A stretch of DNA of 64,000 nucleotides, from the NCBI RefSeq assembly GCF_026712245.1, contig NZ_JAPPUY010000006.1:186001-250000 (forward strand), given 5' to 3'. This stretch comes from Roseateles hydrophilus. Lineage in GTDB: Bacteria > Pseudomonadota > Gammaproteobacteria > Burkholderiales > Burkholderiaceae_C. Made by a program: the position numbers and the translations under genes. Below the pieces are notes generated by a model, which saw nothing but the letters and a program-made list of their open reading frames with translations, ran no database searches and was not told the DNA's origin. Positions 8,682 through 58,735 of the stretch are shown one piece after another (the stretch's first letter is position 1; every line of letters begins with the position of its first letter).

Positions 8682-8682
8682 C

Positions 8683-22285: not shown

Positions 22286-22459
22286 GCGCGCTGGCGGGTC
22301 TCCCGCGGCGGCAGCTGGCGGCGAAAAGTGCGCAGGCGACCCGCCAATTGAGCGGATCTGAACGCCGTTGACGGCGCAGAATCGAGGCCAACTGACACCG
22401 GTGGGCATCCCGCCGCCGGTGTGTCGCGTCCGCACGAGCCCTTGCCACCCATCCATACC

Positions 22460-24322: not shown

Positions 24323-24342
24323 GCTGACCCGGAGACGCCCAG

Positions 24343-26676: not shown

Positions 26677-26693
26677 GCGGTTGAGAGTCGCTG

Positions 26694-27902
26694 ATGGCGG
26701 GAGGCAGTCAACGAGACGGCATGTTCACCAGCGCGCTGGCCAGCGCGCTCGCCGACGAGCCGCTGCCGCGCTCGATGTGGGCGCTCTACCTGCTGGCGGC
26801 TGCCCTGGTGGCGGCCATCGCCTGGGCCAGCATCGCGGAGGTGGACCAGGTCAGCCGCGTGCAGGGCCGCGTGGTGCCCGAGGCGCGCGAGCAGGTCATC
26901 GCCAGCCTGGACAGCGGCCTGCTGGCAGAACTCAAGGTGCGCGAGGGCGAGGAGGTGCAGGCCGGCCAGGAGCTGGCGCGGCTGGACCCGACCCGCGTGG
27001 AAGCCCAGGAGAACGAGGGCGTGCTGCGCCGCACGGCGATGCGGGTGGCGATCGCGCGACTGCGGGCCGAGGCCTATGGCAGCAAGTTCGAGTTGCCGGC
27101 AGACCTGCCGACGACCTCCGAGGCCGTGGCGCTTGAGCGGCAGGCCTTCGAGGCCCGGCAGCGCCTGCTGGACGAGGCCGTGTCCAGCCTGGACCGCAGC
27201 GTCGGCCTGCTGGCTCGCGAGCTGAAGGTGGCGCAGGACCTGTCGGCCAAGGGGCTGATGTCCGAGGTGGAGGTCATGCGCGTGAACCGCCAGATCAACG
27301 ACCTGCGCCAGCAGCGCCAGGAGCGGGTGAGCCGCTTCCGCCAGGAAGCCAGCCAGGAGCTGACGCGCCAGGAAAACGAACTGGCCGCGCTGGAGGAGCA
27401 GCAGGTGGTGCGCCAGGACGCGATGAAGCGCACGGTGCTGCGCTCGCCGGTGCACGGCATCGTCAAGAACATCCGCATCACGACGCTGGGCGGCGTGGTC
27501 ACCAGCGGGGCGCCCATCATGGAGATCGTGCCGCTGGGCCCCACGGTGCTGATCGAGGCGCGCATCCCGCCCAGCGAGGTGGGCTTCATCCAGATCGGCC
27601 AGCGCGCCATCATGAAGATCACCGGCTATGACTACAACGTGCACGGCGGGCTGGAGGGCAAGATCGAGGTCATCAGCGCCGACACGCTGGGCGACAACGA
27701 CAAGCCGAACGCAGCCGGCGACGCGCGCTACTACCGCGCCCTGCTGCGCGCCGAGCGCAACAACCTGCAGCGCAACGGCCAGCCGCTGCCGGTCATTCCG
27801 GGCATGAGCGCCACGGTCGAGATCAAGACCGGCGAGCGCACCGTGCTGAGCTACCTGCTGCGGCCGCTGATGCGCTCGCAGGAAGCGCTGCGCGAGCGCT
27901 GA
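26694..27902 (+). CDS. HlyD-family membrane fusion protein of the type I secretion system
   Basis: The 402-residue protein has a short cytoplasmic tail, one inner-membrane helix (about 27-47), a lipoyl half motif (VIASLDSGLLAELKVREGEEVQAGQELARLD), a long coiled-coil hairpin (about 120-260) and the second lipoyl/beta-barrel part (RSPVHGIVKNIRITTLGGVV; RIPPSEVGFIQIGQRAIMKI). It bridges the ABC exporter at 24343 and the TolC-like channel at 28015. It starts 17 bp after the exporter stop. Confidence 0.92.
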   Translation: MAGGSQRDGMFTSALASALADEPLPRSMWALYLLAAALVAAIAWASIAEVDQVSRVQGRVVPEAREQVIASLDSGLLAELKVREGEEVQAGQELARLDPTRVEAQENEGVLRRTAMRVAIARLRAEAYGSKFELPADLPTTSEAVALERQAFEARQRLLDEAVSSLDRSVGLLARELKVAQDLSAKGLMSEVEVMRVNRQINDLRQQRQERVSRFRQEASQELTRQENELAALEEQQVVRQDAMKRTVLRSPVHGIVKNIRITTLGGVVTSGAPIMEIVPLGPTVLIEARIPPSEVGFIQIGQRAIMKITGYDYNVHGGLEGKIEVISADTLGDNDKPNAAGDARYYRALLRAERNNLQRNGQPLPVIPGMSATVEIKTGERTVLSYLLRPLMRSQEALRER

Positions 27903-28014
27903 GGCGGCCGCCGCCCGGCGCGAAGTAGCCCGGCGCAGCCCCGCTTCTCGCGGCTTCAGCGCCGCACCGCGCATGGTCTAGTGAGGGCTGACGTCTCATT
28001 GCCGTATCCGACCC

Positions 28015-29355
28015 ATGCCCGCCTTCCACCGCCTCCTGCTGCTGGCCCTGGCCTGCGGCATCGCTGCGCCCGTCGCCGCGCAGGTGCGCTGTGTCGACGA
28101 CGATGCGACGGTCGTCAGTGATCGCGCCAAGGGCGTGGACCTGTCCATCTCGTCCACCGACCCGCGCGGCCAGCTGGTCTCGCTGGTGGAGACCGCGCTG
28201 CAGCGCAGCGAGCAGATCGGCTCGGCCACGCTGCTGGCGCAGGCGGCGCGTGAGGACTGGGTGCAGGCCAGCGAGGCCTACCGGCCCAGCGTCAACGCCA
28301 CCGTCAGCGGCGCCGCGGCCGGCCAGCATGCCGGCGGCCAGCACCGCCAGCAACTGCAGTCCCAACTGTCGCTGGGCTTCAGCATGCCGTTGTGGGATGC
28401 CGGCCGCGCGGCCTACACCAGCGCCTGGCGCGGGCAACTGGCCGAAGCCTCGCGCCAGGGCCTGTTCAGCGCCGAGCAGCAGATCGCGATCCAGGTCGTC
28501 AACCATTCGCTGGACCGCGGCCGGCTGCTGCTGCAGGCCCAGATCTACCGCCAGTACATGCGCCGCATGGCCTGCCTGGTCGAGGCGCTGGAGGGCATCG
28601 TCAAGGTCGACAAGGGCCGGGCCAGCGAGCTGATCCAGGCGCAGAAAAGCCAGATGACGGCCGAGCTGTCCATGGAGCAAACGGTCAGTGCGCTGCGCTC
28701 CACCGAGTTCCGCCTCAAGCGCCTGGTCGGCGACGAGCTGCCGCCCAGCGCCAGCTATGCCACCGTGCTGAACCAGCTGCCCGACATCGAGTCGCTCAAG
28801 CTCGCGGCGGCGCAGTCGCCCGACATGCTCTCGCTGCAGGCCAACTCGCGGGCGCAGCGCCGCTACGCCGAAAGCGTCAGCGCGCAGAGCAAGCCGCAGG
28901 TCAACCTGGGTGGGGCGACGGTCGCCACTGCCACCAACCGCGGCACCAAGGCCGGCGAATGGAATGCCGGCGTGAGCCTGACCGTGCCCTTGCTGCAGCC
29001 TGGCCAGAACGCCGCCGAGCAGGCCGCCGCCAAGCGCGCCGCGGCCGCCGAAGCGCAGGTGCGCGACGCGCTCAACGCCAAGGTCTACCAGATGAGCGAC
29101 CTGCACGGCTCTGCCGAGGCGGCGCTGGAACGCTCGCGCCGCATCGTCGAGATCCTGCGCAGCAGCGAACGCCTGCGTGCCGCGACGCTGGTGCAGTGGC
29201 AGCAGATGGGGCGGCGCTCGCTGTTCGACGTGATGGGCGCCGAGGCCGACTACTATTCCCTGCGCGTGGCCCAGCTCAGCACGCTGTTCGAGGCCCAGCA
29301 GGCGCTGGCCATGCTGTGGTCTCTGGGGCCGGGTGTGATGGCGGCGCTGCGTTGA
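28015..29355 (+). CDS. TolC-family outer-membrane channel of the type I secretion system
   Basis: The 446-residue protein has a signal peptide (to about residue 23, PVAAQ) and two OEP domain repeats with long helices: LVSLVETALQRSEQIGSATL (start of repeat 1) and LKLAAAQSPDMLSLQANSRA (start of repeat 2). Conserved SLTVPLLQPGQ and SMPLWDAGR segments are also present. It provides the outer-membrane exit duct. A 112-bp gap separates it from the HlyD gene. Confidence 0.9.
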   Translation: MPAFHRLLLLALACGIAAPVAAQVRCVDDDATVVSDRAKGVDLSISSTDPRGQLVSLVETALQRSEQIGSATLLAQAAREDWVQASEAYRPSVNATVSGAAAGQHAGGQHRQQLQSQLSLGFSMPLWDAGRAAYTSAWRGQLAEASRQGLFSAEQQIAIQVVNHSLDRGRLLLQAQIYRQYMRRMACLVEALEGIVKVDKGRASELIQAQKSQMTAELSMEQTVSALRSTEFRLKRLVGDELPPSASYATVLNQLPDIESLKLAAAQSPDMLSLQANSRAQRRYAESVSAQSKPQVNLGGATVATATNRGTKAGEWNAGVSLTVPLLQPGQNAAEQAAAKRAAAAEAQVRDALNAKVYQMSDLHGSAEAALERSRRIVEILRSSERLRAATLVQWQQMGRRSLFDVMGAEADYYSLRVAQLSTLFEAQQALAMLWSLGPGVMAALR

Positions 29356-35003: not shown

Positions 35004-35034
35004 CACGCTTCCTTGATGTGCGAGCGTCAGGCGC

Positions 35035-38491: not shown

Positions 38492-38495
38492 GGCG

Positions 38496-40581: not shown

Positions 40582-40645
40582 GGCAGACACACAGTGGCGG
40601 GAAGGCCAGTATGTCCGCGCTCGCCAGGGCAGGCGCCGGGATTTG

Positions 40646-40663
40646 ACGGCGAAAGCTCGCCGT
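40646..40663. other. Hairpin between the aldo/keto reductase and cytidylyltransferase genes
   Basis: ACGGCGA and TCGCCGT form a perfect 7-bp stem with a 4-nt loop. A run of four T follows on the plus strand only. It may be a partial terminator, attenuator or processing site splitting the long minus-strand operon. Confidence 0.35.
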
Positions 40664-40693
40664 TTTGCTGCGATGCAGCGCCGTACGGGTGGA

Positions 40694-41548: not shown

Positions 41549-41549
41549 G

Positions 41550-42710: not shown

Positions 42711-42711
42711 G

Positions 42712-43713: not shown

Positions 43714-43949
43714 GGTGACGGGCCTGACGAGGTTGCGTGGCGGAACCGGGAGGTCCGGCGACGAAAGGGCGAAAGCTTGCAAAAGCCACTGTCCCAGGAC
43801 TTGAGGGTGCAAATCCGGTGAAAAGCGGCCGGCGGACGATGCATTTTGCGGCCGCCGCGCACCACCTCCGGGTGCAAGGCCTGACCAGCCAGGGGAAGCC
43901 CGGCGATCTCCGCGCTTCGGTCAGCGTCATGACCTGTTAGCGTGCCGGC
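43714..43949. promoter_or_regulatory. Divergent promoter region for the pseB operon and the WxcM-like gene
   Basis: The 236-bp gap separates two divergent operons and must hold both promoters. It contains GGCGAAAGCTTGCAAAAGCC around 43770, whose GGCGAAAGCT core recurs in the hairpin at 40646-40663. No confident -35/-10 or sigma-54 site was found. Confidence 0.4.
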
Positions 43950-44894
43950 ATGACGACAGATGCTCCCTTCATCCACGCCCAGGCCCTGGTGGAGAGCCCG
44001 CACATCGGCGCGGGCAGCCGCGTCTGGGCATTCGCCCACATCCTGCCTGGCGCCCGCATCGGGCGCGACGCCAACATCTGCGACCACGTCTTCATCGAGA
44101 ACGCGGTGCAGCTCGGCGACCGGGTGACGGTCAAGTGCGGCGTGCAGCTGTGGGATGGCGTGCAGGTGGACGATGACGTCTTCATCGGTCCCAACGTCAC
44201 CTTCTCCAACGACCCCTTCCCGCGCAGCAAGCAGCGCCCCGAGCAGCCGCTGCGGACCTGGGTGCGCAAGGGCGCGAGCATCGGCGCCAACGCCACCATC
44301 CGGCCGGGGCTGACGATAGGCGCGGGCGCCATGGTGCAGGACGGCGCCGTCGTGACGCGCGATGTGCCGCCCCATGCCATCGTGGCCGGCAATCCGGCGC
44401 ACGTGGTGGGCTATGTGGACACCGGCACCCGGCCTGCCGAGCCGGCCCGGCGCGTGAACGCCGATGACCTGACGCTGCAGGTGCCCGGCGCGGCGCTGGT
44501 GAAGCTGCCCAAGGTCATCGACATGCGTGGCTCGCTGACAGTCGGCCAGGTGGACGCGCAGCTGCCCTTTGTGCCGCAGCGCTTCTTCCTCGTCTACGAC
44601 GTGCCCAGCCGCGAGGTGCGGGGCGAGCATGCGCACAAGGCCTGTCACCAGTTCCTGGTCTGTGTGAAGGGCAGTCTCAGCGTGGTGCTGGACGACGGCG
44701 AGCACCGCGACGAGGTGCTGCTGGACAGCCCGCTGCTGGGCTTGCACATTCCGCCCATGGTCTGGGGCATCCAGTACCGCTTCAGCGCCGATGCGGTGCT
44801 GCTGGTGCTGGCCTCGGACCCCTACGACCCGGCCGACTACATCCGCAGCTACGACGACTACCTCGCCGCCGTCGCCGCTCACGGCCATGGCTGA
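43950..44894 (+). CDS. WxcM-like fusion: hexapeptide acyltransferase plus FdtA-type sugar ketoisomerase
   Basis: The 314-residue protein has an N-terminal left-handed beta-helix acyltransferase (about 5-150; repeats such as GARIGRDANICDHVFIENAV, and VFIGPNVTFSNDPFPRSKQR) fused to a cupin (about 175-305) with RGEHAHKACHQFLVCVKGSL, the FdtA/QdtA/WxcM signature. FdtA-type enzymes convert dTDP-4-keto-6-deoxyglucose to the 3-keto isomer; the acyltransferase acetylates the 3-amino sugar later. The fusion therefore joins the first and last steps of a Fuc3NAc/Qui3NAc pathway. The stop overlaps the next gene's start. Confidence 0.87.
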   Translation: MTTDAPFIHAQALVESPHIGAGSRVWAFAHILPGARIGRDANICDHVFIENAVQLGDRVTVKCGVQLWDGVQVDDDVFIGPNVTFSNDPFPRSKQRPEQPLRTWVRKGASIGANATIRPGLTIGAGAMVQDGAVVTRDVPPHAIVAGNPAHVVGYVDTGTRPAEPARRVNADDLTLQVPGAALVKLPKVIDMRGSLTVGQVDAQLPFVPQRFFLVYDVPSREVRGEHAHKACHQFLVCVKGSLSVVLDDGEHRDEVLLDSPLLGLHIPPMVWGIQYRFSADAVLLVLASDPYDPADYIRSYDDYLAAVAAHGHG

Positions 44895-45993
44895 CGCGCC
44901 CATCCCCTTCCTGGACCTGCAGCCGGTCTACCGCGCGGCGCAAGCCGCCATCGACGCGGCGCTGCTGCGCGTGGCCGGCAGCGGCTGGTTCCTGCTGGGC
45001 GAGGAGCTCAAGGCGTTTGAGCGCGCGTATGCCGCAAGCGTTGGCACGGCCGATTGCGCGGGTGTGGCCAACGGGCTGGATGCGCTGGCGCTGGCGCTGG
45101 AGGCACTGGGCGTGGGGCCGGGCGACGAGGTCATCGTGCCGTCCAACACCTACATCGCGACCTGGCTGGCCGTCAGCCAGTGTGGCGCGACGCCGGTGCC
45201 GGTGGAGCCTGATCCGCACACCTACAACCTCGACCCGGCGCGCCTTGCCGCCGCCATCACGCCGCGCACCAAGGCCTTGCTGCCGGTGCACCTGTACGGC
45301 CTGCCGGCCGACATGGACGCCATCAACGCGGTGGCCGTGCGGCACGGCCTGAAGGTGCTGGACGACTGCGCCCAGGCGCATGCAGCCGTCTACCAGGGCC
45401 GCGCGGTGGGCAGCCTGGCGGATTTGTCGGCCTGGAGCTTCTACCCCGGCAAGAACCTTGGCGCGATGGGCGACGGCGGCGGCATCACCGGTGACGACGC
45501 CGCGCTGATGGCGCAGGTGCGCATGCTGCGCAACTACGGCTCCCAGGTGAAGTACCACAACGAGGTCAAGGGCCGGAACTCGCGGCTGGACGAGATCCAG
45601 GCCGCCGTGCTGGCGGCCAAGCTGCCGCTGCTGCAGGCCCAGACCGAGGAGCGCCGCCGACTCGCCGCGATGCTGCTGGACGGCCTGCACGGCGCGCCGC
45701 TGCAGCTGCCCGTGGTGCCGGCCGGGCTGGCGCCGGCCTGGCACCTGTTCGTCGTGCAACACGAGGCGCGCGACCGGCTGCAGGCCGAGTTGGCGAAGCA
45801 GGGCATTGGCACGCTGATCCACTACCCGGTGCCGCCGCATCGGCAGCCGGCCTACGCGGAGCTGGGCTACGGTGACGGTGATTTCCCGATCAGCGAGGCC
45901 ATGCACCGCCGCGTGCTGAGCCTGCCGCTGTGGCCGGGCATGACGGATGAGCAGGTGGCGCGGGTGATCCGCGCGGTGCGCGCGGCCGCCTAG
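44887..45993 (+). CDS. DegT/DnrJ/EryC1 sugar aminotransferase, FdtB/QdtB-like
   Basis: The 368-residue PLP enzyme has [61 protein letters not shown] and the PLP Lys in [14 protein letters not shown]. It is the type that aminates the 3-keto sugar made by FdtA. ATG 44887 overlaps the previous stop by 8 bp. Its TAG lies in CTAG, which on the other strand also forms the stop of the convergent acyltransferase. No rmlA/rmlB is in the window. Confidence 0.88.
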
Positions 45994-46490
45994 TCGGGTG
46001 CCTCGTCGCGCGGCGGCACCGGTCCGCGGGAGCGTGCCGGGTTGCCCACCCACAGCTCGCCCGCGGGCACGTCCCTGGTGACCACGCTGCCGGCGCCGAT
46101 CAGCGCGCCGGCACCGATGCGCACGCCGCCCAGGATGGTGGCATTCGCGCCGATGGATGCGCCGCGCTCGATGACCGTCTGCTGAAACGCCGCCGGGCGC
46201 TGGCGCGAGCGCGGCACGCGGTCGTTCGTGAAGGTGGCGTTGGGGCCGATGAACACGTCGTCCTCGACGCGCAGGCCGTCCCACAGCTGCACGCCGGACT
46301 TCAGCGTCACGCGGTCGCCCACGACGACATCGTTCTCCACCAGCACCTGGGCGTTGATGTTGCAGTCGGCGCCGATGCGGGCGCCGGGCAGGATGACGCA
46401 GAACTGCCAGACGCGGGTGCGCGGCCCGAGATGCGGGCTCTGCACGTCGGCCAGCGGGTGGATCTGGGGGGCGTCGGGATCGTGGCTCAT
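45990..46490 (-). CDS. Left-handed beta-helix acyltransferase (paralogue of the WxcM-like N-domain)
   Basis: The 166-residue hexapeptide-repeat protein has [58 protein letters not shown] and [18 protein letters not shown]. It is close along its length to the acyltransferase half of the 43950 gene, including GVQLWDG and VFIGPN. It likely N-acetylates an amino sugar. ATG 46490 is chosen over upstream starts. It needs its own promoter because a strong terminator lies upstream. Confidence 0.82.
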
Positions 46491-46543
46491 GGCTGATGGG
46501 GCGGTGTGCGTTCGCATCATCGGGCAGGCCGAGGGTTGCCGTG

Positions 46544-46575
46544 ACAAGAAAGAAGGGCGCCCATGTGGGCGCCCT
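46544..46575 (-). terminator. Strong rho-independent terminator of the giant repeat gene
   Basis: On the minus strand AGGGCGCCCA and TGGGCGCCCT form a 10-bp stem with a 2-nt nominal loop, followed immediately by TTCTTTCTTG. It lies 25 bp after the stop of the giant gene. Confidence 0.88.
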
Positions 46576-46599
46576 CCGGGCCGGGTCAGCGAGCGCTGA

Positions 46600-49500
46600 T
46601 CAGATCAGCGGCGGCTGCCGGTTCAGCTCGTCCTCGTCCTGCGGCCGCGGCTTGACGAGCAGCGGCTCGACCTGCGGGACGGGGCTGGTGACCAGCGTGT
46701 CCGTCGGCGTGTCGCCCGGCAGCGTCAGCTCGCTGGGCGCGGCCAGCACATCGCTGAGCTGCAGCTGCACCGTGGTCGCATCGCTCGTCACCGGCCCGCT
46801 GGTGCTGCTGCCGGCGCTGGCGTCTCGGGTGAACCACACGTCCGCCATCTCGTGGGTGGCCCCGTCGGTGGTCTGGTAGCTGCCCACCAAGCCGATCAGG
46901 TTGCCGTTGTCCAGCGCCGTGGAGGTCTGCGACTGCAGGCTCAGGCTGGCGATGCCCAGGTCGGCCAGCGACTTCAGCTCGCCGCTGTCGGTGACGCCGT
47001 CGGTGTCGGCGTCCACCCAGATCTGCAGTTGGCTGTAGTTGATGTCGCTGGCGTCGAGCTTGCCGTCCTGGTTGCCGTCCAGCGCGGCCATCGCGGCGTA
47101 GCCATCCTTGGCGCGGCTGCCGTCGGCCAGCACAGTGCCTTCGCCGAACAGCTCCTTGCCGTCGTTGATGACGCCGTCGCCGTTGATGTCACGCACCAGC
47201 AGGCCGTCGCCGCCGCCCACCCAGCCCCACTGTTGCCAGACGCCGCGTCCCAGCAGGTCGTAGCTGACGCCCTCGGCCGCCGCGACCGTTTCGACGCCGT
47301 CGCCGTCCAGGTCCAGGATGATGGGCGAGACCTGCGCGGGAATCAGCGCATTGAGCTGTTCGCTGGTCATGGCTTGCACAGCCTCGCTGGTGAACGCTCC
47401 GGCCTGGGCCATGGACAGCTGGCCGAGGTCGGCCGCATCCAGGCCGACCACCTGCTCGCTGGTGATGGCGTGCAGCTGTTCGGTGCTCAGCGCGGTGACC
47501 TGCGCGGAATTCAGCGCCTTCAGGTCCTCGCTGGCCAGGGCAACGATGTGCTCGGTACCCAGGCCACGCAGAGCCGAGGTGCTGAACGACGCGATGTCCA
47601 CGCTGTCGAAGGCAGCGATCTCGGAGGTTTGCAGCGCACTCAGCTGGTCCGACATCAGCGAGTTCAGCTGGGCCGTGCTCATGGCGGTCAGCTGGGCCGA
47701 CTCGAAGCCGGCGAACTGCTCGCTGGTCAGGCTGCGCAGCTGCAGCGTGCTGAACGCCGAGATGTCAGCCGTTTCGAACACGCGGATCTGCGCGGTCTCC
47801 AGCCCATCGAGCTGCTGCGTCGTGAAGGACGCGATCTGTGCGCTGCCCAGGGCCACGATCTGGTCGGTGCCGAAGGCGCCGATCTCGTCCGAGCCCAGGC
47901 CGCGCAGGGCTGCCGTGGTCAGGTTGGCAATGTCCTGGGTTTCCAGTGCAGCGATCTGCTCAGTGCTCATCACCTCCATCTGGGCCGAGCTCAGCACCTT
48001 GAACTGGTCGGTCGTCAGCGCGCGCAGGTCCGCCGTTTCCATGCCGGCCACCTGGGTGGTCGTGAGGTTGGCCACCTGGTTGGTCGTCATGGACGCGATC
48101 TGATCCGTGCCCAGCGCGTTGAACTGTTCGGTGCTCAGCGCGCGGATCTGGGCCGTGGTCAGGGCACGCAGGTCGTCGGTTTCCAGCGCTGCCGCCTGTT
48201 CGGTGCTCAGGCCACGCAGCTGTTGCGTGGTCAGCGACTGGATCTGGGCCGTGCCGAACGCGCGGATCTGGTCGGAGCCGAAGGCATCGATGGTCTCGGA
48301 AGCCAGCCCGCGCAGCGCAGCCGTGGTGAGCACGGCCAGGTCGGCGGTCTCGATGGCCACCAGCTGTTCGCTGGTCAGCGCACCGACCTGGGCCGAGCTC
48401 AGCACCTTGAACTGGTCGGTGGTCAGCGCACGCAGGTCGGCCGTCTCCAGGTCAGAGACCTGGGCCGTCGTCAGGTTGGCGATCTGGCCGGTGGTCATCG
48501 CGGCGAACTGGTCGGTGCCCAGCGCGTTGAGCTGCTCGGTGCCCAGCGAGCGGATCTGCGCGGTGGTCATGGCGCGCAGGTCGTCGGTTTCCAGCGCGGC
48601 CATCTGCTCAGTGCTGATGCCCTTGAGCTGCTGCGTCGTCAGCGACTGGACCTGCGCCGTGCCGAGCGCGCGGATCTGGTCGGAGCCGAAGGCGTCGATG
48701 GTCTCGGACGTGAGGCCTTGCAGGGCGGCCGTGGTCAGCACGGCGAGGTCGGCCGTCTCGATGGCGGCCAGCTGCTCGCTGGTCAGCGCGCCCACCTGGG
48801 CGGAGCTGAGCACCTTGAACTGGTCAGTGGTCAGCGCGCGCAGGTCCGATGTCTCCAGGTCGGACACCTGGGCCGTCGTCAGGTTGGCCACTTGCACGGT
48901 GGTCAGCGACGCGAACTGGTCGGTGCCCAGCGCGTTGAGTTGTTCGCTGGACAGCGCACGCAGCTGCGTGGTCGTCAGCGCGCGCAGGTCGTCGGTCTCC
49001 AGCGCAGCGGTCTGCTCGGAGCTCAGGCCCTTGAGCTGCTGCGTGGTCAGCGACTGGATCTGGGCCGTGCCGAAGGCGCGGATCTGGTCGGAGCCGAAGG
49101 CGTCGATGGTCTCGGAGGCCAGGCCGCGCAGTGCGGCGGTGGTCAGCACGGCCAGATCGGCGGTCTCGATGGCGGCCAGCTGCTCGCTGGTCAGCGCGCC
49201 CACCTGGGCGGAACTGAGCACCTTGAACTGGTCGGTGGTCAGCGCACGCAGGTCAGCGGTCTCCAGCTTGGCGACCTGGGCCGTTGTCAGGTTGGACACC
49301 TGCACCGTGGTCATGGACGCGAACTGATCCGTGCCCAGCGCGTTGAGCTGCTCGGTGGCCAGGGCACGCAGTTGCGTGGTGGTCAGCGCGCGCAGGTCGT
49401 CGGTCTCCAGCGCGGCCATCTGCTCGGTGCTCAGGCCCTTGAGCTGCTGCGTGGTCAGCGACTGGACCTGCGCCGTGCCGAGCGCGCGGATCTGGTCGGA

Positions 49501-52500
49501 GCCGAAGGCGTCGATGTTCTCCGACGTGAGGCCACGCAGCGCCGCGGTGGTCAGCACAGCCAGGTCGGCGGTCTCGATGGCGGCCAGCTGTTCGCTGGTC
49601 ATCGCCGCGGTCTGGGCGGAGCTGAGGGCCTTGAACTGGTCGGTCGTCAGCGCGCGCAGGTCGGATGTTTCCATCGCGGCGACCTGGCCGGTCGTCAGGT
49701 TGGCCACCTGCACCGTCGTCATCGCGGCGAACTGGTCGGTGCCCAGCGCGTTGAGCTGCTCGGTGGCCAGGGCACGCAGTTGCGTGGTGGTCAGCGCGCG
49801 CAGGTCGTCGGTCTCCAGCGCGGCCATCTGCTCGGTGCTGATGCCCTTGAGCTGCTGCGTTGTCAGCGACTGGATCTGCGCCGTGCCCAGCGCACGGATC
49901 TGGTCGGAGCCGAAAGCGTCGATGGTCTCGGACGCGATGCCGCGCAGCGCCGCGGTGGTCAGCACGGCGAGGTCGGCCGTCTCGATGGCGGCGAGCTGTT
50001 CGCTGGTCATGGCCGCCATCTGCGCGGAGCTGAGGGCCTTGAACTGGTCGGTCGTCAGCGCGCGCAGGTCGGCCGTCTCCAGGTCAGAGACCTGGGCCGT
50101 CGTCAGGTTGGCCACCTGGGCGGTGGTCATGGCCGCGAACTGGTCGGTGCCCAGGGCGTTGAGCTGTTCGCTGGACAGCACGCGGATCTGCGCGGTGGTC
50201 AGCGCGCGCAGGTCGTCGGTTTCCAGCGCAGCCACCTGCTCGGAGCTCAGGCCCTTGAGCTGTTGGGTGGTCAGCGACTGGATCTGGGCGGTGCCGAAGG
50301 CACGGATCTGGTCGGAGCCGAAGGCATCAATGTTCTCCGACGTCAGGCCCCGCAGCGCCGCGGTGGTCAGCACCGACAGATCGACGGTCTCGATCGCGGC
50401 CAGCTGTTCGCTGGACAACGCGCCCACCTGGGCGGAGCTCAGCACCTTGAAGTGATCGCTGCTCAGTGCACGCAGATCGGCCGTCTCCAGCTTGCCGACC
50501 TGAGTCGTCGTCAGGTTGGCAACCTGGCCAGTCGTCAGCGACGCGATCTGGTCGGTGCCCAGCGCATTGAGCTGCTCGGTCGACAGGCTGCGCAGCTGCG
50601 CCGTGGTCAGCGCGCGCAGGTCGTCGGTCTCCAGGGCCGCCATCTGCTCGGTGCTCAGGCCGCGCAGCTGCTGCGTGGTCAGCGACTGGATCTGCGCGGT
50701 GCCCAGCGCCTGGATCTGGTCGGAGCCGAAGGCGTCGATGGTCTCGGACGCAATACCGCGCAGCGCGGCCGTCGTCAGCACGGCCAGGTCGGCGGTCTCG
50801 ATGGCGGCCAGCTGCTCGCTGGTCATCGCCGCCATCTGGGCGGAGCTGAGCGCCTTGAACTGGTCGGTGGTCAGCGCGCGCAGGTCGGTGGTCTCCAGGT
50901 CAGAGACCTGGGCCGTCGTCAGATTGGCCACCTGCACAGTGGTCAGTGACGCGAACTGGTCGGTGCCCAGCGCATTGAGTTGCTCGCTGGACAGCGCACG
51001 GATCTGCGTGGTGGTCAGCGCGCGCAGGTCGTCGGTCTCCATCGCCGCCATCTGCTCAGAGCTGAGGCCCTTGAGCTGCTGGGTGGTGAGCGACTGGATC
51101 TGCGCCGTGCCCAGTGCGCGGATCTGGTCAGAGCCGAAGGCGTCGATGGTCTCGGACGCGATGCCGCGCAGCGCGGCGGTCGTCATCACCGCGAGGTCTG
51201 CGGTTTCGATGGCGGCCAGCTGCTCGCTGGCCAGGGCGCCCACCTGGGCCGAGCTCAGCGCCTTGAACTGGTCGGTGCTCAGCGCGCGCAGGTCGGACGT
51301 CTCCAGCTTGCCGACCTGGGCCGTGGTCAGGTTGGCCACCTGGCCGGTGGTCAGCGACGCGAACTGGTCGGTGCCCAGCGCGTTGAGCTGCTCGCTGCTC
51401 AGCCCGCGCAGTTGCGCGGTCGTCAGCGCACGCAGGTCATCCGTCTCCATCGCGGCCATCTGCTCGGTGCTGATGCCCTTGAGTTGCTGCGTCGTCAGTG
51501 ACTGGATCTGGGCCGTGCCCAGCGCGCGGATCTGGTCGGAGCCGAAGGCGTCGATGTTCTCGGACGTGATGCCGCGCAGCGCGGCCGTCGTCAGCACCGC
51601 CAGGTCGGCGGTCTCGATGGCAGCCAGCTGCTCGCTGGTCATCGCCGCCATCTGCGCCGAGCTGAAGGACTTGAACTGGTCGGTCGTCAGCGCGCGCAGG
51701 TCGGCCGTCTCCATCGCGGCCACCTGGGCCGTCGTCAGGCTGCTGATCTGGGCCGTGGTGGGCGTGGCGAACTGCTCGGTGGTCAGCGCGTTGAGCTGAT
51801 CGGTGGCCAGGCCGCGGACCTGGCTGGTGCTGAGCGCACGCAGGTCATCCGTCTCCATGGCCGCCATCTGCTCGGTGGAGAGGCCCTTGATCTGCTGGGT
51901 CGTGAGCGATTGGATTTGCCCCGTGCTCAGCGCACGGATCTGGTCGGAGCCGAAGGCGTCGATGCTCTCGGACGCGATGCCGCGCAGCGCCGCGGTGGTC
52001 ATCACCGCGAGGTCGGCGGTCTCGATGGCCGCCAGCTGTTCGCTGGCCAGCGCGCCCACCTGGGCGGAACTCAGCACCTTGAACTGGTCGGTGCTGAGCG
52101 CGCGCAGGTCGGACGTCTCCAGCTTGCCGACCTGGGTCGTCGTCAGGTTGGCCACCTGGCCGGTGGTCAGCGACGAGAACTGGTCGGTGCCCAGCGCGTT
52201 GAGTTGGTCGGTGGACAGGCTGCGCAGCTGTGCGGTGGTCAGCGCACGCAGGTCGTCCGTCTCCATCGCGGCCATCTGCTCGGTGCTGAGGCCCTTGAGT
52301 TGCTGCGTGGTCAGCGACTGGATCTGGGCCGTGCCGAACGCGCGGATCTGGTCAGACCCGAAGGCGTCGATGTTCTCCGACGCGATGCCGCGCAGCGCGG
52401 CGGTGGTCAGCACCGCGAGGTCAGCGGTCTCGATGGCGGCCAGCTGCTCGCTGGTCATCGCGGCCAGCTGTGCCGAGCTGAAGGACTTGAACTGGTCGGT

Positions 52501-55500
52501 CGTCAGCGCACGCAGGTCGGCCGTTTCCAGCGCGGCCACCTGGGCCGTGGTCAGGCTGCTGATCTGGATGGTGGTGGGCGTGGCGAACTGCTCGGTGGTC
52601 AGCGCGTTGAGCTGATCGGTCGCCAGGCCGCGGACCTGGGTCGTGCTCAGGGCGCGCAGATCCTCGGACTCCATCGCGGCCATCTGCTCGGTCGAGAGGC
52701 CCTTGATCTGTTGCGTGGTGAGTGCCTGGATCTGGGCCGTGCCCAGCGCACGGATCTGGTCGGAGCCGAAGGCGTCGATGGTCTCGGACGTGATGCCGCG
52801 CAGCGCGGCCGTGGTCAGCACGGCGAGGTCGGCGGTCTCGATGGCGGCGAGCTGCTCACTGGTCATCACCGCCGTCTGGGCGGAGCTGAGCGCCTTGAAC
52901 TGGTCGGTGGTCAGCGCGCGCAGGTCGGCTGTTTCGAGGTCGGAGACCTGGGCTGTCGTCAGGTTGGCCACCTGCGCCGTGGTGAGCGAGGCGAACTGGT
53001 CGGTGCCGAGTGCATTGAGCTGTTCGGTGCTCAATGCGCGGATCTGCGCGGTCGTCATGGCGCGCAGGTCGTCTGTTTCCAGCGCGGCCATCTGCTCGGT
53101 AGAGAGGCCCTTGAGCTGCTGGGTCGTCAGTGCCTGGATCTGGGCCGTGCCGAGCGCGCGGATCTGGTCGGAGCCGAAGGCGTCGATGGTCTCCGAGGTG
53201 AGGCCGCGCAGCGCCGCCGTGGTCAGCACGGCGAGGTCAGCCGTCTCGATGGCGGCCAGCTGCTCGCTGGTCATCGCGCCCACCTGCGAAGAACTCAGAA
53301 CCTTGAACTGGTCGGTCGTCAGCGCGCGCAGATCGGCGGTTTCCATGCCGGCGACCTGGGCCGTGGTCAGGTTGGCCACCTGGCCCGTGGTCATGGCGGC
53401 GATCTGGTCGGTGCCCAGCGCGTTCAGCTGCTCGCTGCCCAGCGCACGGATCTGCGCCGTGGTGAGCGCGCGCAGGTCGTCGGTCTCCAGCGCAGCCATC
53501 TGCTCGGTGGCCAGGCCCTTGAGTTGCTGCGTCGTCAGCGACTGGACCTGGGCCGTGCCCAGGGCGCGGATCTGGTCAGAGCCGAACGCGTCGATGCTCT
53601 CGGAGGCGATGCCGCGCAGCGCGGCGGTCGACATCGCCGCGAGGTCGGCAGTTTCGATGGCGGCCAGCTGCTCGCTGGTCATGGCGCCCACCTGGGCCGA
53701 GCTCAGCACCTTGAACTGGTCGCTGCTGAGCGCGCGCAGGTCGGACGTCTCCAGCTTGGCGACTTGGGCCGTCGTCAGGTTGGCCACCTGGCCGGTGGTC
53801 AGCGATGCGAACTGGTCGGTGCCCAGCGCGTTGAGCTGTTCGGTGGACAGGGCGCGGATCTGCGCCGTGGTCATGGCACGCAGGTCGTCCGTCTCGAGCG
53901 CGGCCATCTGCTCGGTGCTCAGGCCACGCAACTGCTGGGTGGTGAGCGCCAGGATCTGGGACGTGCCGAGCGCGCGGATCTGATCGGAGCCGAAGGCGTC
54001 GATGGTTTCCGACGCGATGCCGCGCAGGGCGGCCGTGGTCATCACGGCCAGGTCAGCGGTTTCGATCGCGGCCAGCTGCTCGCTGGTCATCGCGCCCACC
54101 TGCGACGAGCTCAGAGCCTTGAACTGATCGGTGGTCAGCGCGCGCAGGTCGGCCGTTTCCATGCCGGCCACCTGGGCCGTGGTCAGGTTGGCGACCTGGC
54201 CTGTGGTCATCGCAGCGATCTGGTCGGTGCCCAGCGCGTTCAGCTGCTCGCTGCCCAGCGCACGGATCTGTGCCGTGGTGAGCGCGCGCAGGTCGTCGGT
54301 CTCCAGCGCGGCCATCTGCTCGGTGGCCAGGCCCTTGAGTTGCTGCGTCGTCAGCGACTGGATCTGGGCCGTGCCGAGCGCGCGGATCTGGTCAGACCCG
54401 AAGGCGTCGATGCTCTCCGACGCGATGCCACGCAGGGCGGCCGTGGTCATCACGGCCAGGTCGGCGGTCTCGATGGCGGCCAGCTGCTCGCTGGCCATGG
54501 CGGCCATCTGGGCGGAGCTGAGTGCCTTGAACTGGTCGGTCGTCAGCGCGCGCAGGTCGGCCGTTTCCAGGTCAGACACCTGGGCGGTGGTCAGGTTGGC
54601 CACCTGGCCCGTGGTCATCGCGGCGAACTGGTCGGTGCCCAGCGCGTTGAGCTGCTCGCTGCCCAGCGCACGGATCTGCGCCGTGGTCAGCGCGCGCAGG
54701 TCGTCGGTCTCCAGGGCCGCCATCTGCTCGGTGGCCAGGCCCTTGAGTTGCTGCGTGGTCAGCGACTGGATCTGGGCCGTGCCCAGCGCGCGGATCTGGT
54801 CGGAGCCGAAGGCGTCGATGGTCTCGGAAGCCAGGCCGCGCAGCGCGGCAGTCGTCATCACGGCGAGGTCAGCCGTTTCGATGGCGGCGAGTTGCTCGCT
54901 CGTCATCGCGCCCACTTGGGCCGAGCTCAGCACCTTGAACTGATCGGTGCTCAGCGCCCGCAGGTCCGCCGTCTCGAGCTTGGCAAGCTGGCCGGTCGTC
55001 AGGTTGGCGACCTGACCGGTCGTCAGCGCGGCGAATTGATCCGTGCCCAGCGCGTTGAGCTGGTCGGTGGACAACCCGCGCAGCTGGGCCGTCGTCAGCG
55101 CGCGCAGGTCGTCGGTCTCCATGGCCGCCATCTGCTCGGTGCTCAGGCCGCGCAGCTGCTGCGTGGTCAGCGACTGGATCTGGGCCGTGCCGAGAGCGCG
55201 GATCTGGTCGGACCCGAAGGCGTCAATCGTCTCGGACGCCAGGCCGCGCAGGGCGGCCGTGCTCAATGCGTTGAGGTCGGCGGTCTCGATGGCCGCCAGC
55301 TGTTCAGAGGCGAGCGCGGCGATCTGGCGCGAAGTGATCACGCGGAAGGCGTCGGAGGTCAGCGCGCGCAGATCCGCCGTCTCGATGGCGGCGAACTGCT
55401 GGGTGCTGAGGCTGCTGACCTGGGTCGTTGTCAGCGCCGCCATCTGCTCCGTGACCAGGGACTTCACGTCCTCCGACACCATGCCCTGCAGTGCCGCCGT

Positions 55501-55719
55501 CGTCAGCCGGGAGATGTCTTCCGTCTCGAAGAACGCAAACTGTTCCGAGCTCAGCGACCGGATCGCGAAACTGGACAGCGTGGACACCTGCGCAGTGGTC
55601 AGGGCCCGGATCTGGTTGGACTCGAAGGCCGCCCAATCTTCCGAGTTCAACTCGCGCAGAGTCGCCGAGGTCAGGCCAGAGATCTGTTCGCTGGTGAGGC
55701 TGCTGATGATGGACGACAT
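46600..55719 (-). CDS. Giant Ser/Thr-rich octapeptide-repeat protein with EF-hand-type calcium-binding tail
   Basis: This 3,039-residue protein has no N-terminal signal peptide. Residues 6-2797 are 349 consecutive octads in one register, consensus x-x-[LMIF]-x-[ST]-x-[QDE]-[LIVMF], for example RALTTAQI or NALGTDQF. Most of them are organised as eighteen 17-octad (136-residue) units. From about 2798 comes [13 protein letters not shown], then EF-hand-like loops [23 protein letters not shown] and [12 protein letters not shown], and a Pro-rich C-terminus with [15 protein letters not shown], reminiscent of type I secretion targets. There are no RTX GGxGxDxxx repeats. It is probably a cell-surface or released adhesin/matrix protein exported by the type I system at 24343-29355. 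ATG 55719 follows GAGGTAGAGAG. Confidence 0.85.
47947..55290 (-). repeat. Tandem array of eighteen 408-bp units inside the giant gene
   Basis: The sequence encoding A-A-I-E-T recurs at exactly 408-bp spacing: anchors at 48349, 48757, 49165, 49573, 49981, 50389, 50797 and so on to 55285. That is 17 identical intervals, hence 18 units. Copies are highly similar at DNA level; partly degenerate units continue toward the 3' end of the gene, down to about 47320. Confidence 0.92.
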
Positions 55720-56139
55720 GTTCTCTCTACCTCAGGTTGGCGCGGCTGGGCGTGCTGACGGATCGGGCCTGTGCCGATGTCCGCGCCGTCCGCTGCTCTT
55801 GAACGAGCAGCTGGCGACGCGCGGGATTACACCGGGGCAGTGTGAAGAAGGCATAACCTGAACGGGTTTTCGGCAGACCGGCTGGCATCTTTAACTTGTG
55901 GACGAACACGGAACAGCCCGCCCCTCGGGGTGGCGCGCTTGTACCGTCGGAGTTCGGCCATGTCTCGCCAGATGGCTGCACGGAAATCCTTCAGACGTTA
56001 ATTTGTCAATGGAATGCTAGGACTCTTCCATATCGGCATTGATCTGAACAGCTTGAGCTTAGTTGTCCTGTTTTTCGCTATCGGCTGGCCCGTTAGGCGC
56101 TCCAATCGCGTCGCCAAAGGGATAACTTGAGCATCCTCC
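55720..56139. promoter_or_regulatory. 420-bp lower-GC divergent region upstream of the giant gene
   Basis: No gene is convincing here. The centre (about 55980-56080) is markedly AT-richer than the rest of the window. A perfect TTGACA lies on the minus strand at 56009-56004, with no clear -10 box, and would give a leader of roughly 260 nt for the giant gene. An inverted repeat TGCTC-ttgaac-GAGCA lies at about 55794-55809 inside that leader. The plus-strand glycosyltransferase gene at 56140 must also be started from here. Confidence 0.4.
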
Positions 56140-57096
56140 ATGCACGTCACGACGCTGATCCCGGCCTACAAAACCAAATACCTCATCGAGCTCATGACGG
56201 GCTTGATCACGCAGACGCATGCGCCAAGCCGGGTCATCGTGTCAGACGACAGCCCGGCGGGTGAGTTCGGTGCGTTGCTGCGCTCGCCCGCCATGGCGCT
56301 GGCCATGCAGAAGCTGCCCATCGAGATTCACACCGGGCCGCGGGCGGGGGCGTATGAGAATTTCAAACATCTCATCAAGTTGTGGGACGGCAGCACCGAG
56401 TTCTGTCACCTGCTGCTGGATGACGACCTGCTCTATCCGGACTTCTACATGCGCCACATGATGGTGCACGCCACCGGGCGACACCCCTGCAGCATCAGCG
56501 CGCGCTGGAACACCAACGAGCGCGGGCAGCCGGTGGAGGGCATGCCTATCCCCAAGGCGGTGTGGCTGTCCAACGACCGCAGCCTGCTGCTGGATGCGAC
56601 CGTGCTGTTCGTCACCACGGTGCCGGACTGCCAGAACTGGCTGGGCGAGTTCTCCAACTGTGTGATGCGCAAGGAGGTGGCCGACTTGCTGCACGAGCCC
56701 TCGTTCGGCGGGGTTTCCTATGCCGGACTGTGGGACTTGGGCATCTTTCTGGCAGCCAGCCTGATCAATCCCGTCGTCTACATCCAGGACAGGCTGGGCG
56801 GCTTCCGGGCGGGCGGGGAAGGGCACTCAGCCCAGATGCTGGGCAAGCACATGAAGGCGGCCCACCTGGCCTACGCCGCGCTGGCGCTGGGGGCGTCGCG
56901 CATTGGCCGGCTGGGCGCTGACCAGGCGCGTCGCACTTACGCCGGCCTGCTGGCGCCGCTGCAGCAGCGCTACGGCCAGGAGGGCGACGTGGCGCCCTTC
57001 ATCGACGTCCTGCGCCGGCTCAGCCAGGGCGATGCGGCGGCCGAAGGCGAGTTCCTCGCGCACTGGCAGGTCTTCCTGGCCAGCCACAAGTTCTGA
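56140..57096 (+). CDS. Family 2-type glycosyltransferase
   Basis: The 318-residue soluble protein starts MHVTTLIPAYKTKYLIELM. It has the GT-A features VIVSDDSPAGEF and the metal-binding HLLLDDDLLYPDFYMRHMM, followed by a helical C-terminal region. It lies divergent from the giant gene and 8-11 bp before the glycosyltransferase/methyltransferase fusion gene. Acceptor and donor are unknown; glycosylation of the giant or of a surface polysaccharide is plausible. Confidence 0.75.
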   Translation: MHVTTLIPAYKTKYLIELMTGLITQTHAPSRVIVSDDSPAGEFGALLRSPAMALAMQKLPIEIHTGPRAGAYENFKHLIKLWDGSTEFCHLLLDDDLLYPDFYMRHMMVHATGRHPCSISARWNTNERGQPVEGMPIPKAVWLSNDRSLLLDATVLFVTTVPDCQNWLGEFSNCVMRKEVADLLHEPSFGGVSYAGLWDLGIFLAASLINPVVYIQDRLGGFRAGGEGHSAQMLGKHMKAAHLAYAALALGASRIGRLGADQARRTYAGLLAPLQQRYGQEGDVAPFIDVLRRLSQGDAAAEGEFLAHWQVFLASHKF

Positions 57097-57107
57097 GGAG
57101 TGCCGTG

Positions 57108-58508
57108 ATGGACGCCCGCCAGATTCCCATCGTCGTCGTCTCGTACAACAGCCCGGCACTGATCGAGCAGCTGCTGGCGTCGCTGCGGCGCTTCTATCCC
57201 AACCCCGTGCACGTCGTGGACGGCTCCGGCGACGAGCATGTGCCCGCCATCCGCGCGGCGGTCGCGCCCTTCGACGGCGTCAGCCTGCACGTGCAGGGCT
57301 ACAACATCCACCACGGGCCCGGCATGGCCTGGGCGGTGGAGCACCTGCCGCTGGGGCCGGTGGCGCTGTTCCTGGACAGTGACATCGTCGTGCTGCGCGA
57401 CGGCTTCATCGAGGCCTTGCTGGCGGAGCTGCAGCCGCAGCACTACGGCGTGGGCGGTGTGGCCTACGTCAACCGCGAGGGCTTCGACATTCCCTACGCC
57501 TACGGCGCCGTGCCTTACCTGCACCCGCCCTGCATGCTGTGCAACATCGAGGTGATGAAGCGCTGGCCGCTGCCCATCAAGCATGGCGCCCCGATGGTGG
57601 CGCCCATGCTGGCGCTGCATGACGCCGGGCAGTCCGGCCTGCTGCGCCATCTGGACTGGACGCTCAACGACGTGACGCCCGGCACGGCCAAGGTCTACAT
57701 CGATCATGTCGGTCGCGGCACGGTCCTCAACACCCAGGGCTATCACCTGGATGAATGGATGGCCGAGGTGCGGGCCCGCCAGGCAGGGGCGCCACCGGCG
57801 CCCGAGGTTGCGGCAGCGCCGCCGCCCGCCGCGCCGGCCGCGCTGGAGCCGCCGGGGTTCAACCCCACGGTGCTGGCGCTCATTCCGTCGGGCGCGCGTC
57901 GCATCGTGGAGGTGGGCTGCAGCACCGGCGGCCTGGCGCAGGCGCTCAAGGCGCAGCGGCCCGATGTGCATTTCATTGGTCTGGAGCTGGACGCAAAGGC
58001 CGCCGAGCTGGCCCGCCAGCGTTGCGACGAGGTGCTGCAGCTGGACATCGAAAGCGCCGGCCCCGAGTTCTTCGCCCGCCTCCAAGGCCAGGACTGCTGG
58101 GTGTTCGGCGACGTGCTGGAACACCTGCGCGACCCCTGGCGCGTGCTGGCCGAGGTGGCTCGCGTGCTGGCACCTGGCGGCTGCGTGGTGGCCAGCGTGC
58201 CCAATGCCCAGCACTGGAGCGTACAGGCGCGGCTCAACATGGGCTTCTTCCAATATGAGGCCACCGGCATGATGGACCGCACGCACCTGCGCTGGTTCAC
58301 CCGCCAGACGCTGTTGCAGCTGTTCGACGGCGCCGGCCTGCAGGTGGACCGTTGCCAGCCCTGCATGGTGGTGGAGCCGCCCATGCGTGAGCGCGCGCTG
58401 GCCGGCGTGCGGCAGATGGCGACGGCGCTGGGGCGCGACCCGGAAGAGGCTGCGCGCGACGCCATGCCCTTCCAGTACGCGCTGCGCGCCCAGCGCCGTG
58501 CCGACTGA
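57108..58508 (+). CDS. Glycosyltransferase-methyltransferase fusion protein
   Basis: The 466-residue two-domain protein has residues 1-225 GT2-like (IPIVVVSYNSPALIEQLLAS; VALFLDSDIVVLRDGFIEAL with D-x-D). A Pro/Ala linker (about 227-250) leads to a class I methyltransferase (RIVEVGCSTGGLAQALKA; DCWVFGDVLEHLRDPWRVLA; ASVPNAQHWSVQARL). This suggests a sugar is transferred and methylated, or a chain is capped, by one protein. ATG 57108 follows GAGGAG; a GTG at 57105 is in frame. It is co-directional with the 56140 gene. Confidence 0.82.
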   Translation: MDARQIPIVVVSYNSPALIEQLLASLRRFYPNPVHVVDGSGDEHVPAIRAAVAPFDGVSLHVQGYNIHHGPGMAWAVEHLPLGPVALFLDSDIVVLRDGFIEALLAELQPQHYGVGGVAYVNREGFDIPYAYGAVPYLHPPCMLCNIEVMKRWPLPIKHGAPMVAPMLALHDAGQSGLLRHLDWTLNDVTPGTAKVYIDHVGRGTVLNTQGYHLDEWMAEVRARQAGAPPAPEVAAAPPPAAPAALEPPGFNPTVLALIPSGARRIVEVGCSTGGLAQALKAQRPDVHFIGLELDAKAAELARQRCDEVLQLDIESAGPEFFARLQGQDCWVFGDVLEHLRDPWRVLAEVARVLAPGGCVVASVPNAQHWSVQARLNMGFFQYEATGMMDRTHLRWFTRQTLLQLFDGAGLQVDRCQPCMVVEPPMRERALAGVRQMATALGRDPEEAARDAMPFQYALRAQRRAD

Positions 58509-58735
58509 GCGTTTCTCTGGCGCGCGAAGCCGGCCTTGCGTGATGGCGGCTTCTGCGCCCAGGCGTGCGCCGGTAGTCTGCGCAGCAGCAAAACTTGCGC
58601 GTGCCGCGCTGGGCTGACCGGCCCGTGGCACACCGGAAGGCGGGGTGGCCACAAGCGGCTTCGCGGGTTCGGTCGCAAGGCTTTGCCTGGCCGATCAGCC
58701 CTCAGAATGGCCGCCTTCGCCGCGACTGCCGACCG

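What the first reader, a model, noticed from the sequence alone, without database searches (positions are those of the whole stretch)
46600..55719. A 3,039-residue protein made of 349 octapeptides in a single unbroken register
Residues 6-2797 (2,792 residues = 349 x 8) repeat x-x-hydrophobic-x-[ST]-x-[QDE]-hydrophobic. Register checks at the first octad (residue 6), the IET anchors at 144 and 2456 and the last octad ending at 2797 all agree. The chain has about two Thr/Ser per octad and no Cys in the units read. I cannot assign this octad to a repeat family I can name; it could be a new solenoid with one short turn per octad.
Basis: partly seen in the sequence, partly recalled or inferred. Interest (0 to 1): 0.9.

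Follow-up and report, generated by a model that had tools for sequence, protein, structure and literature searches.

The report
Giant exported helical-repeat protein, probably glycosylated
A bacterium carries one enormous protein built from 349 copies of an eight-residue unit, probably a long rod of tiny helices that is pushed out of the cell and decorated with sugars; the repeat family already has a name but, as far as I could find, no known job.

Summary
The octad protein is real: 3,039 aa, minus strand, 349 octads in one register. Its repeat is a described Pfam family (PF20080, ALTTAQ repeat, 2,537 bits), so "no family I can name" is corrected; two literature searches found no paper naming the motif or accession. 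AlphaFold2 predicts one 4-6-residue helix per octad; a solved chain named HeliScrew4 has a closely similar octad (E 4e-16).

The finding overlooked the C-terminus. [quoted passage not shown] In 90 of 90 octad-linked SPM sequences examined this residue is Thr or Ser; the main Ca2+ ligands stay.

The window also holds an OGT-like GT41 glycosyltransferase gene beside a type I secretion operon. In the genus its transporter occurs in all 15 octad-positive and 1 of 5 octad-negative genomes. Five octad genomes without GT41 have few Ser/Thr at the helix start; eleven with it have more.

Best reading: a T1SS-exported, O-glycosylated alpha-solenoid surface rod with a non-cleaving Ca2+ cap. Fold is predicted; export, glycosylation and surface role are inferred.

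The parts
46600..55719 (-). Octad-repeat (ALTTAQ) protein gene, 3,039 aa plus stop
   Evidence: only gene with PF20080 matches in this genome: all 83 matches lie in this one ORF
47329..55704 (-). 349 octads, residues 6-2797
47881..55224 (-). 18 units of 136 residues (17 octads each), counted from each DAFGSDQI, residues 166-2613
47323..47328 (-). Ser2798-Pro2799, at the place of the scissile Asp414-Pro415 of FrpC
   Evidence: no Asp-Pro anywhere in the protein
46822..47325 (-). SPM-like Ca2+-binding domain, residues 2799-2966
   Evidence: phmmer 6sjw E 8.1e-41; AF2 model matches 6sjx, Foldseek E 9.3e-16, TM 0.76 by target
46603..46821 (-). Low-confidence (probably disordered) tail, residues 2967-3039, ending QPPLI; putative T1SS signal
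   Evidence: pLDDT under 50 for the last 66 residues; similar tails in relatives
46552..46577 (-). Terminator-like hairpin just behind the stop codon
   Evidence: 1 found, 0.0 expected from shuffles
22421..24322 (+). TPR-GT41 (OGT/SPINDLY-like) glycosyltransferase
   Evidence: PF13844 E 2.3e-74; PDB matches human OGT 2.4e-85 and XcOGT 2.3e-77
24343..26676 (+). Type I secretion ABC transporter, LssB type
   Evidence: TIGR03375 761.5 bits, cut-off 693.1
26694..27902 (+). Type I secretion adaptor, HlyD family
   Evidence: TIGR01843 309.6 bits, cut-off 208.65
28015..29355 (+). Outer-membrane efflux protein (TolC-like)
   Evidence: PF02321 72.7 bits; TIGR01844 only 67.4 bits, below its cut-off 225
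43950..45993 (+). Amino-sugar genes between the two: FdtA plus acetyltransferase protein, DegT/PseC-like aminotransferase
   Evidence: homologues near octad/T1SS genes in six other genomes
45990..46547 (-). Hexapeptide acetyltransferase next to the repeat gene
56140..58508 (+). GT2-like protein (318 aa, below cut-off) and GT2-methyltransferase fusion, divergent from the repeat gene

Best explanation
A giant surface protein. A T1SS exports it C-terminus first; its last 73 residues are the signal; the SPM-like domain binds Ca2+ outside and folds, acting as a folding cap in place of RTX repeats. It does not cut itself, because the Asp of the Asp-Pro site is Ser. The 349 octads fold as a chain of N-capped mini-helices, a long alpha-solenoid rod. 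Before export a GT41 enzyme made with the T1SS puts sugars on Ser/Thr at the start of the mini-helices, so the rod carries regularly spaced O-glycans; the nearby amino-sugar genes may supply or extend them. The product is a glycosylated rod at the cell surface (adhesin, sheath or coat). Shown: sequence architecture, gene linkage, site substitutions. Predicted: fold. Inferred: export, glycosylation, surface role.
For: Fold: AF2; Foldseek finds mesothelin, a solenoid of short helices, E 1.6e-5 (PMC10035497 passages); similar solved octad chain. SPM. T1SS: no signal peptide-like stretch; ABC orthologue in 15 of 15 octad-positive and 1 of 5 octad-negative genomes of the genus, the same 16 genomes have the GT41 orthologue within 130 bases of it. 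Named genomes: GT41 orthologue (59% or more) within 330 bases of the ABC match in 17 of 20, octad/SPM gene on the same contig within 27 kb of the ABC in 12 of 20. Two other families with distant T1SS genes (27-30% identity) have GT41, T1SS and octads side by side: L177 in G391, L179-L180 in G064. Same 398-genome draw: 19 of 28 octad genomes have GT41 against 51 of 370 others. Ser/Thr test: pos 5 plus pos 6 Ser/Thr per octad 0.76-1.79 in 11 genomes with GT41, 0-0.48 in 5 without; pos 4 is similar in both. His and Lys motifs of GT41 present in 15 of 15 aligned copies (their catalytic role in OGT is recalled).
Against: 16 of the 19 joint genomes are one family; by genus the association is 5 of 12 against 31 of 201, p 0.034. 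In 7 of 20 named genomes the ABC is on another contig and Duganella has no such ABC at the cut-off. In the window the two loci are 20 kb apart. Five GT41-negative genomes come from few genera; G411 (0.23) and G370 (0.30) nearly meet at position 5, G391 has little at position 6. TolC-like protein is below the NCBIfam cut-off. AF2 models vary (88 to 43). No RTX nonapeptides. No anchor found.
Confidence: 0.5

Rival explanations
1. Same T1SS-exported alpha-solenoid, but not glycosylated by this GT41; GT41 acts on another surface protein or polysaccharide and the Ser/Thr at the helix start are only good capping residues.
For: Ser/Thr at helix starts are structurally favourable (general knowledge); GT41 also occurs in 51 of 370 genomes without octads; the window holds a large nonulosonate/amino-sugar cluster that could serve LPS or flagella.
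Against: GT41 sits beside the T1SS in all 16 genomes of the genus that have both and directly beside the octad gene in G391 and Duganella G426, where the matched T1SS is distant or not found; five GT41-negative octad genomes have few Ser/Thr at positions 5-6, three of them mostly Pro.
Confidence: 0.27
2. It is an S-layer or sheath subunit rather than a free rod: the solenoids pack side by side into a coat bound to surface polysaccharide through the Ca2+ domain.
For: T1SS export and Ca2+ domain resemble the logic of the Caulobacter S-layer (recalled, not tested); one gene per genome here, several in some relatives; neighbouring polysaccharide genes; Leptothrix among the hosts.
Against: No lattice evidence; repeat number varies widely between relatives; the one search for S-layer with Roseateles found no paper.
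Confidence: 0.15
3. A functional clip-and-link protein like FrpC that cuts itself and cross-links to a partner.
For: Clear SPM homology and conserved Ca2+ ligands and Pro.
Against: The published chemistry needs the Asp side chain (PMC7078468, passages); this protein has Ser there and no Asp-Pro at all; Thr/Ser in 90 of 90 octad-linked sequences.
Confidence: 0.04
4. A leucine-rich-repeat or beta-solenoid (for example ice-binding) protein.
For: phmmer gives LRR chains at E 8e-5 to 9e-6; Pfam LRR_EndoS and other families also pass their cut-offs on the whole protein; Thr-Thr arrays.
Against: AF2 shows helices only, no strand; the octad is shorter than an LRR and PF20080 scores over 20 times higher than LRR_EndoS (2,536.7 against 110.4 bits); the InaZ-type octad is recalled to be Gly/Tyr-rich, and there is no Tyr in the octads.
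Confidence: 0.04

Closest known systems
Pfam PF20080 ALTTAQ repeat
   Same: The repeat itself; 102 stretches pass
   Different: Nothing known of role in the papers I could search; this report adds a domain architecture and gene context
FrpC/ApxIVA self-processing module (PDB 6sjw, 6sjx; PMC7078468)
   Same: Fold, EF-hand-like Ca2+ loops, Pro at the start, T1SS-type context
   Different: Ser/Thr instead of the scissile Asp, no Asp-Pro, no RTX nonapeptides, octads instead of the Frp N-terminal part
HMW1/HMW1C adhesin with its own GT41 (PMC3012730, PMC3983070, PMC2877744; search listing and start of abstracts only)
   Same: A GT41 enzyme made for one large exported surface protein
   Different: HMW1 is a two-partner-secreted protein modified on Asn; here T1SS and, if right, O-linkage by an OGT/SPY-like enzyme
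HeliScrew4 (PDB 9zem)
   Same: Octad of the form A-A-L-[TS]-P-[ED]-[QK]-h, E 4e-16
   Different: 120 residues, mostly Pro where the window has Ser/Thr; by its name and sequence presumably designed (I saw only the name and sequence, no title or paper)
Mesothelin (8cx3, 7ued; PMC10035497 passages)
   Same: Solenoid of short helices, extracellular; best Foldseek hit
   Different: TM 0.33 and rmsd about 10; ARM/HEAT repeats of 27-37 residues; no sequence relation shown

Membership tests
PF20080 ALTTAQ repeat | Score above the curated cut-off (26.4 bits) | tested here: met
   2,536.7 bits, 102 stretches. Six other families also pass on the whole protein (CAAP1, LRR_EndoS, EF-hand_11, Phage_TAC_7, Rio2_N, DUF4351) with 0-2 stretches each; I read these as repeat-composition artefacts
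FrpC-type SPM (clip-and-link) | Homologous Ca2+-binding fold | tested here: met
   D462, E474, D499, N501, D503, D510, D521, E532 equivalents 90 of 90; first site (D419, D421, D423) more variable
FrpC-type SPM (clip-and-link) | Scissile Asp-Pro | tested here: not met
   Ser2798-Pro2799; Thr 61, Ser 29 of 90 octad-linked; 14 Asp and 8 Ser of 22 with a readable S/D-P site without octads, plus 2 others
FrpC-type SPM (clip-and-link) | Self-cleavage on Ca2+ | not testable with these tools
   needs purified protein
T1SS substrate | No N-terminal signal peptide, C-terminal signal | tested here: inconclusive
   No hydrophobic N-terminal stretch; conserved tail type; signal function not testable
T1SS substrate | Cognate T1SS | tested here: met
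   Linkage; cognate status itself is inferred
RTX protein | GGxGxDxxx nonapeptides | tested here: not met
   0 matches to GGxGxD
GT41 protein O-glycosyltransferase (OGT) | TPR plus GT41 catalytic domain with His and Lys motifs | tested here: met
   activity and sugar donor not testable
Mesothelin family / ARM-HEAT | Same global fold | tested here: not met
   TM 0.33, rmsd about 10
LRR | Beta strand in each repeat | tested here: not met
   All-helical prediction

The most novel reading that the evidence does not exclude
A bacterial 'mucin rod': a rigid alpha-solenoid of up to several hundred mini-helices, each with an O-glycan at its start, made by a dedicated OGT-like enzyme and exported by T1SS; the SPM fold has been recruited as a Ca2+ cap, with a strictly conserved Thr/Ser-Pro plus an Asp (98 of 98 Ser/Thr-Pro sequences, but 3 of 14 Asp-Pro ones) whose role is new, structural or catalytic.
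Probability: 0.33. Interest if true: 0.82.

Novelty: new variant of a known kind. Interest (0 to 1): 0.6.

Why it matters
If right, it gives a role to a named but apparently unstudied repeat family, shows a T1SS and OGT-like glycosylation pairing that recurs in several bacterial families, and offers a natural counterpart of a recently solved octad chain. It also shows a calcium-triggered self-cutting domain in a large group of proteins that have lost the cutting residue, which bears on how the domain is annotated and searched for as a protein-ligation tool. All this is directly testable in an environmental laboratory strain.

Tried and rejected
Rejected: LRR, caspase-inhibitor, EF-hand_11, phage tail chaperone and similar Pfam hits of the whole protein and the NCBIfam FMN reductase and DarE hits (far below cut-offs): composition of a repeat. 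Rejected: plus-strand ORFs over the same stretch. Rejected: clip-and-link activity, for lack of Asp-Pro. I considered the loss of FrpC D478 as further evidence against cleavage, but that position is not conserved in the Asp-Pro group either, so I do not use it. Literature: ALTTAQ, HeliScrew, octapeptide repeat with solenoid, short-helix design terms, T1SS with giant adhesin and glycosyltransferase, PF20080, S-layer with Roseateles gave nothing on this protein; the library holds open-licence PMC papers only. Rfam and tRNA scans of the window were empty. No promoter-like site in 55650-56160. Foldseek did not list 9zem; its library ends at releases of 2026-04-08 and I do not know the release date of 9zem.

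Some named genomes are the same as genomes of the genus search (equal contig lengths), so these sets overlap. The octad statistics and one search use my own run filter; Burkholderiales loci contain overlapping wrong-register runs. The GT41-negative status of G213, G216, G293 and G411 is at E 1e-30, that of G075 at E 1e-60 only, with 6 octads.

Full report
What is there. The finding's ORF is on the minus strand, 55719 down to 46600, 3,039 aa. A 17-octad, 136-residue unit repeats 18 times. Between units the third codon position is the most varied (0.88, 0.93, 0.70 identity), as expected for a protein kept by selection. A terminator-like hairpin lies just behind the stop. In this genome all 83 PF20080 matches lie in this one ORF.

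Family and fold. The repeat is Pfam PF20080, 2,536.7 bits, 102 stretches. AlphaFold2 on 272 residues with 17 windows of the same protein as alignment gives pLDDT 88.3, pTM 0.75, all helix, each octad a helix of 4-6 residues and a short turn; the five models score 88.3, 86.4, 66.9, 58.8 and 43.1, so the local fold is better supported than the global shape. Foldseek's best solved matches are mesothelin chains (E 1.6e-5, probability 1.00) but with TM 0.33 and rmsd about 10, so this is likeness of short-helix solenoids, not membership. By sequence the best solved match of the repeats is 9zem 'HeliScrew4' (E 4.2e-16). LRR chains also appear weakly (E about 1e-5); the all-helical model speaks against LRR. 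If about three octads make one turn with about 1 nm rise, 349 octads would make a rod of the order of 100 nm; this is my estimate, not a result.

The C-terminus. Residues 2799-2966 match the FrpC self-processing module (E 8.1e-41), and a second AF2 model (pLDDT 72.3, tail under 50) matches 6sjx with Foldseek E 9.3e-16 and TM 0.76 by target length. In FrpC Ca2+ triggers cleavage of Asp414-Pro415, the Asp side chain attacking its own carbonyl to give an anhydride (PMC7078468; abstract, first part of Results and passages read). Here the site is Ser2798-Pro2799 and no Asp-Pro exists in the protein. Among 89 sites in 74 of 78 named loci the residue is Thr 61 times and Ser 28 times; in 90 distinct octad-linked sequences Thr 61, Ser 29. 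SPM-like domains without octads have Asp in 14, Ser in 8 and something else or no residue in 2, so Ser-Pro is not unique to octad proteins. The chief Ca2+ ligands are kept: eight positions are 90 of 90. The equivalent of D579 is Asp in all 98 Ser/Thr-Pro sequences but in 3 of 14 Asp-Pro ones, an unexplained link. I read the domain as a Ca2+ folding cap that stands where RTX repeats stand in other T1SS substrates; strict GGxGxD repeats are absent. A tail of 73 residues follows, acidic and ending in PLI; relatives end alike (PLI, PLL, VLI, WI and similar).

Relatives. The named scan gave 78 loci, nearly all betaproteobacterial records such as Roseateles, Paucibacter, Mitsuaria, Aquabacterium, Ideonella, Leptothrix, Rubrivivax, Duganella and Derxia, with one labelled only Proteobacteria. 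In 398 genomes of the phylum 28 have PF20080 matches (25 above its cut-off), patchily. Caulobacter vibrioides is the one of 14 control genomes that has it.

Secretion and sugar genes. 22421-29355 encodes TPR-GT41, a T1SS ABC transporter of LssB type and an HlyD adaptor, both above NCBIfam cut-offs, and a TolC-like protein that is above the Pfam but below the NCBIfam cut-off. In the genus 15 of 20 genomes have octads; the ABC orthologue (63% identity or more) is in these 15 and in G019, an 83% complete genome of 750 contigs, and not in G001, G005, G011, G015. The GT41 orthologue is in the same 16, within 130 bases of the ABC match. In 11 of the 15 the listed ABC and octad matches are on one contig; in G014 and G016 the listed ones are on different contigs; for G010 and G018 no octad position was listed. 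In 20 named genomes that I chose from the 78 loci, the GT41 orthologue lies within 330 bases of the ABC match in 17, and the octad/SPM gene lies on the ABC's contig within 27 kb in 12; in 7 it is on another contig; Duganella has no ABC at E 1e-90 but has GT41 about 0.5 kb from an SPM gene. In G391 and G064, of other families, octad genes, GT41 and T1SS genes of only 27-30% identity stand together, so the trio is not just one inherited operon. FdtA and DegT-type amino-sugar genes recur nearby in L018, L020, L022, L024, L029 and L190 of the 35 loci searched.

Is it glycosylated? In the same 398 genomes GT41 (E 1e-60) is in 19 of 28 octad genomes and 51 of 370 others (odds 13); 16 of the 19 belong to one family, and by genus it is 5 of 12 against 31 of 201, p 0.034. 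A test inside the octads: 5 octad genomes without GT41 have Ser/Thr at position 5 in 0-23% and at position 6 in 0-25% of octads (Pro at position 5 in 22-61%); 11 with GT41 have 30-86% and 8-93%, sum 0.76 or more per octad; position 4, the likely N-cap, is Ser/Thr-rich in both. The window has 346 of 349 at position 5. The groups are few and related, and G370 and G411 lie close at position 5. Copies of GT41 keep the His and Lys motifs in 15 of 15 rows. A precedent for a GT41 serving one exported adhesin is HMW1C (listing and abstract starts only), there on Asn and with two-partner secretion.

Verdict. Observation confirmed; family known; context and the Ser/Thr-Pro SPM are the new part. Joint confidence 0.5: fold and T1SS export are the stronger steps, glycosylation and surface role the weaker.

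Noticed in passing
33150-43812: Cluster with NeuB, a cytidylyltransferase, PseB-like, DegT, class III aminotransferase, ATP-grasp and GFO/IDH genes: a nonulosonic-acid type pathway. CMP transferase scores are below cut-offs.
   Followed up: partly
29471-31162: 563-aa protein behind the T1SS operon without Pfam or NCBIfam match; found again only in L191 (48%) among 35 loci.
   Followed up: partly
58595-60070: 491-aa protein without Pfam family, 76-77% identical copies in L019 and L032 near octad genes.
   Followed up: partly
L023:16643-18001 and L024:1-3903 (G003): A second octad gene behind the first, with more Pro at the helix start and its own SPM.
   Followed up: no
L031 (G006), L018 (G012): Octad genes split into several overlapping ORFs in different frames; frame errors or decay. 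Not mended.
   Followed up: no
7299-10863: NMT1-like binding protein, permease, ATPase and cyanase in a row: a cyanate or nitrate type uptake operon.
   Followed up: no
SPM position equivalent to FrpC D579: Asp in 98 of 98 Ser/Thr-Pro sequences but 3 of 14 Asp-Pro ones; unexplained.
   Followed up: no
G108, G060, G124 and other genomes of family f47: Several GT41 genes per genome (up to 22 matches in G060) in genomes with many octad proteins.
   Followed up: no
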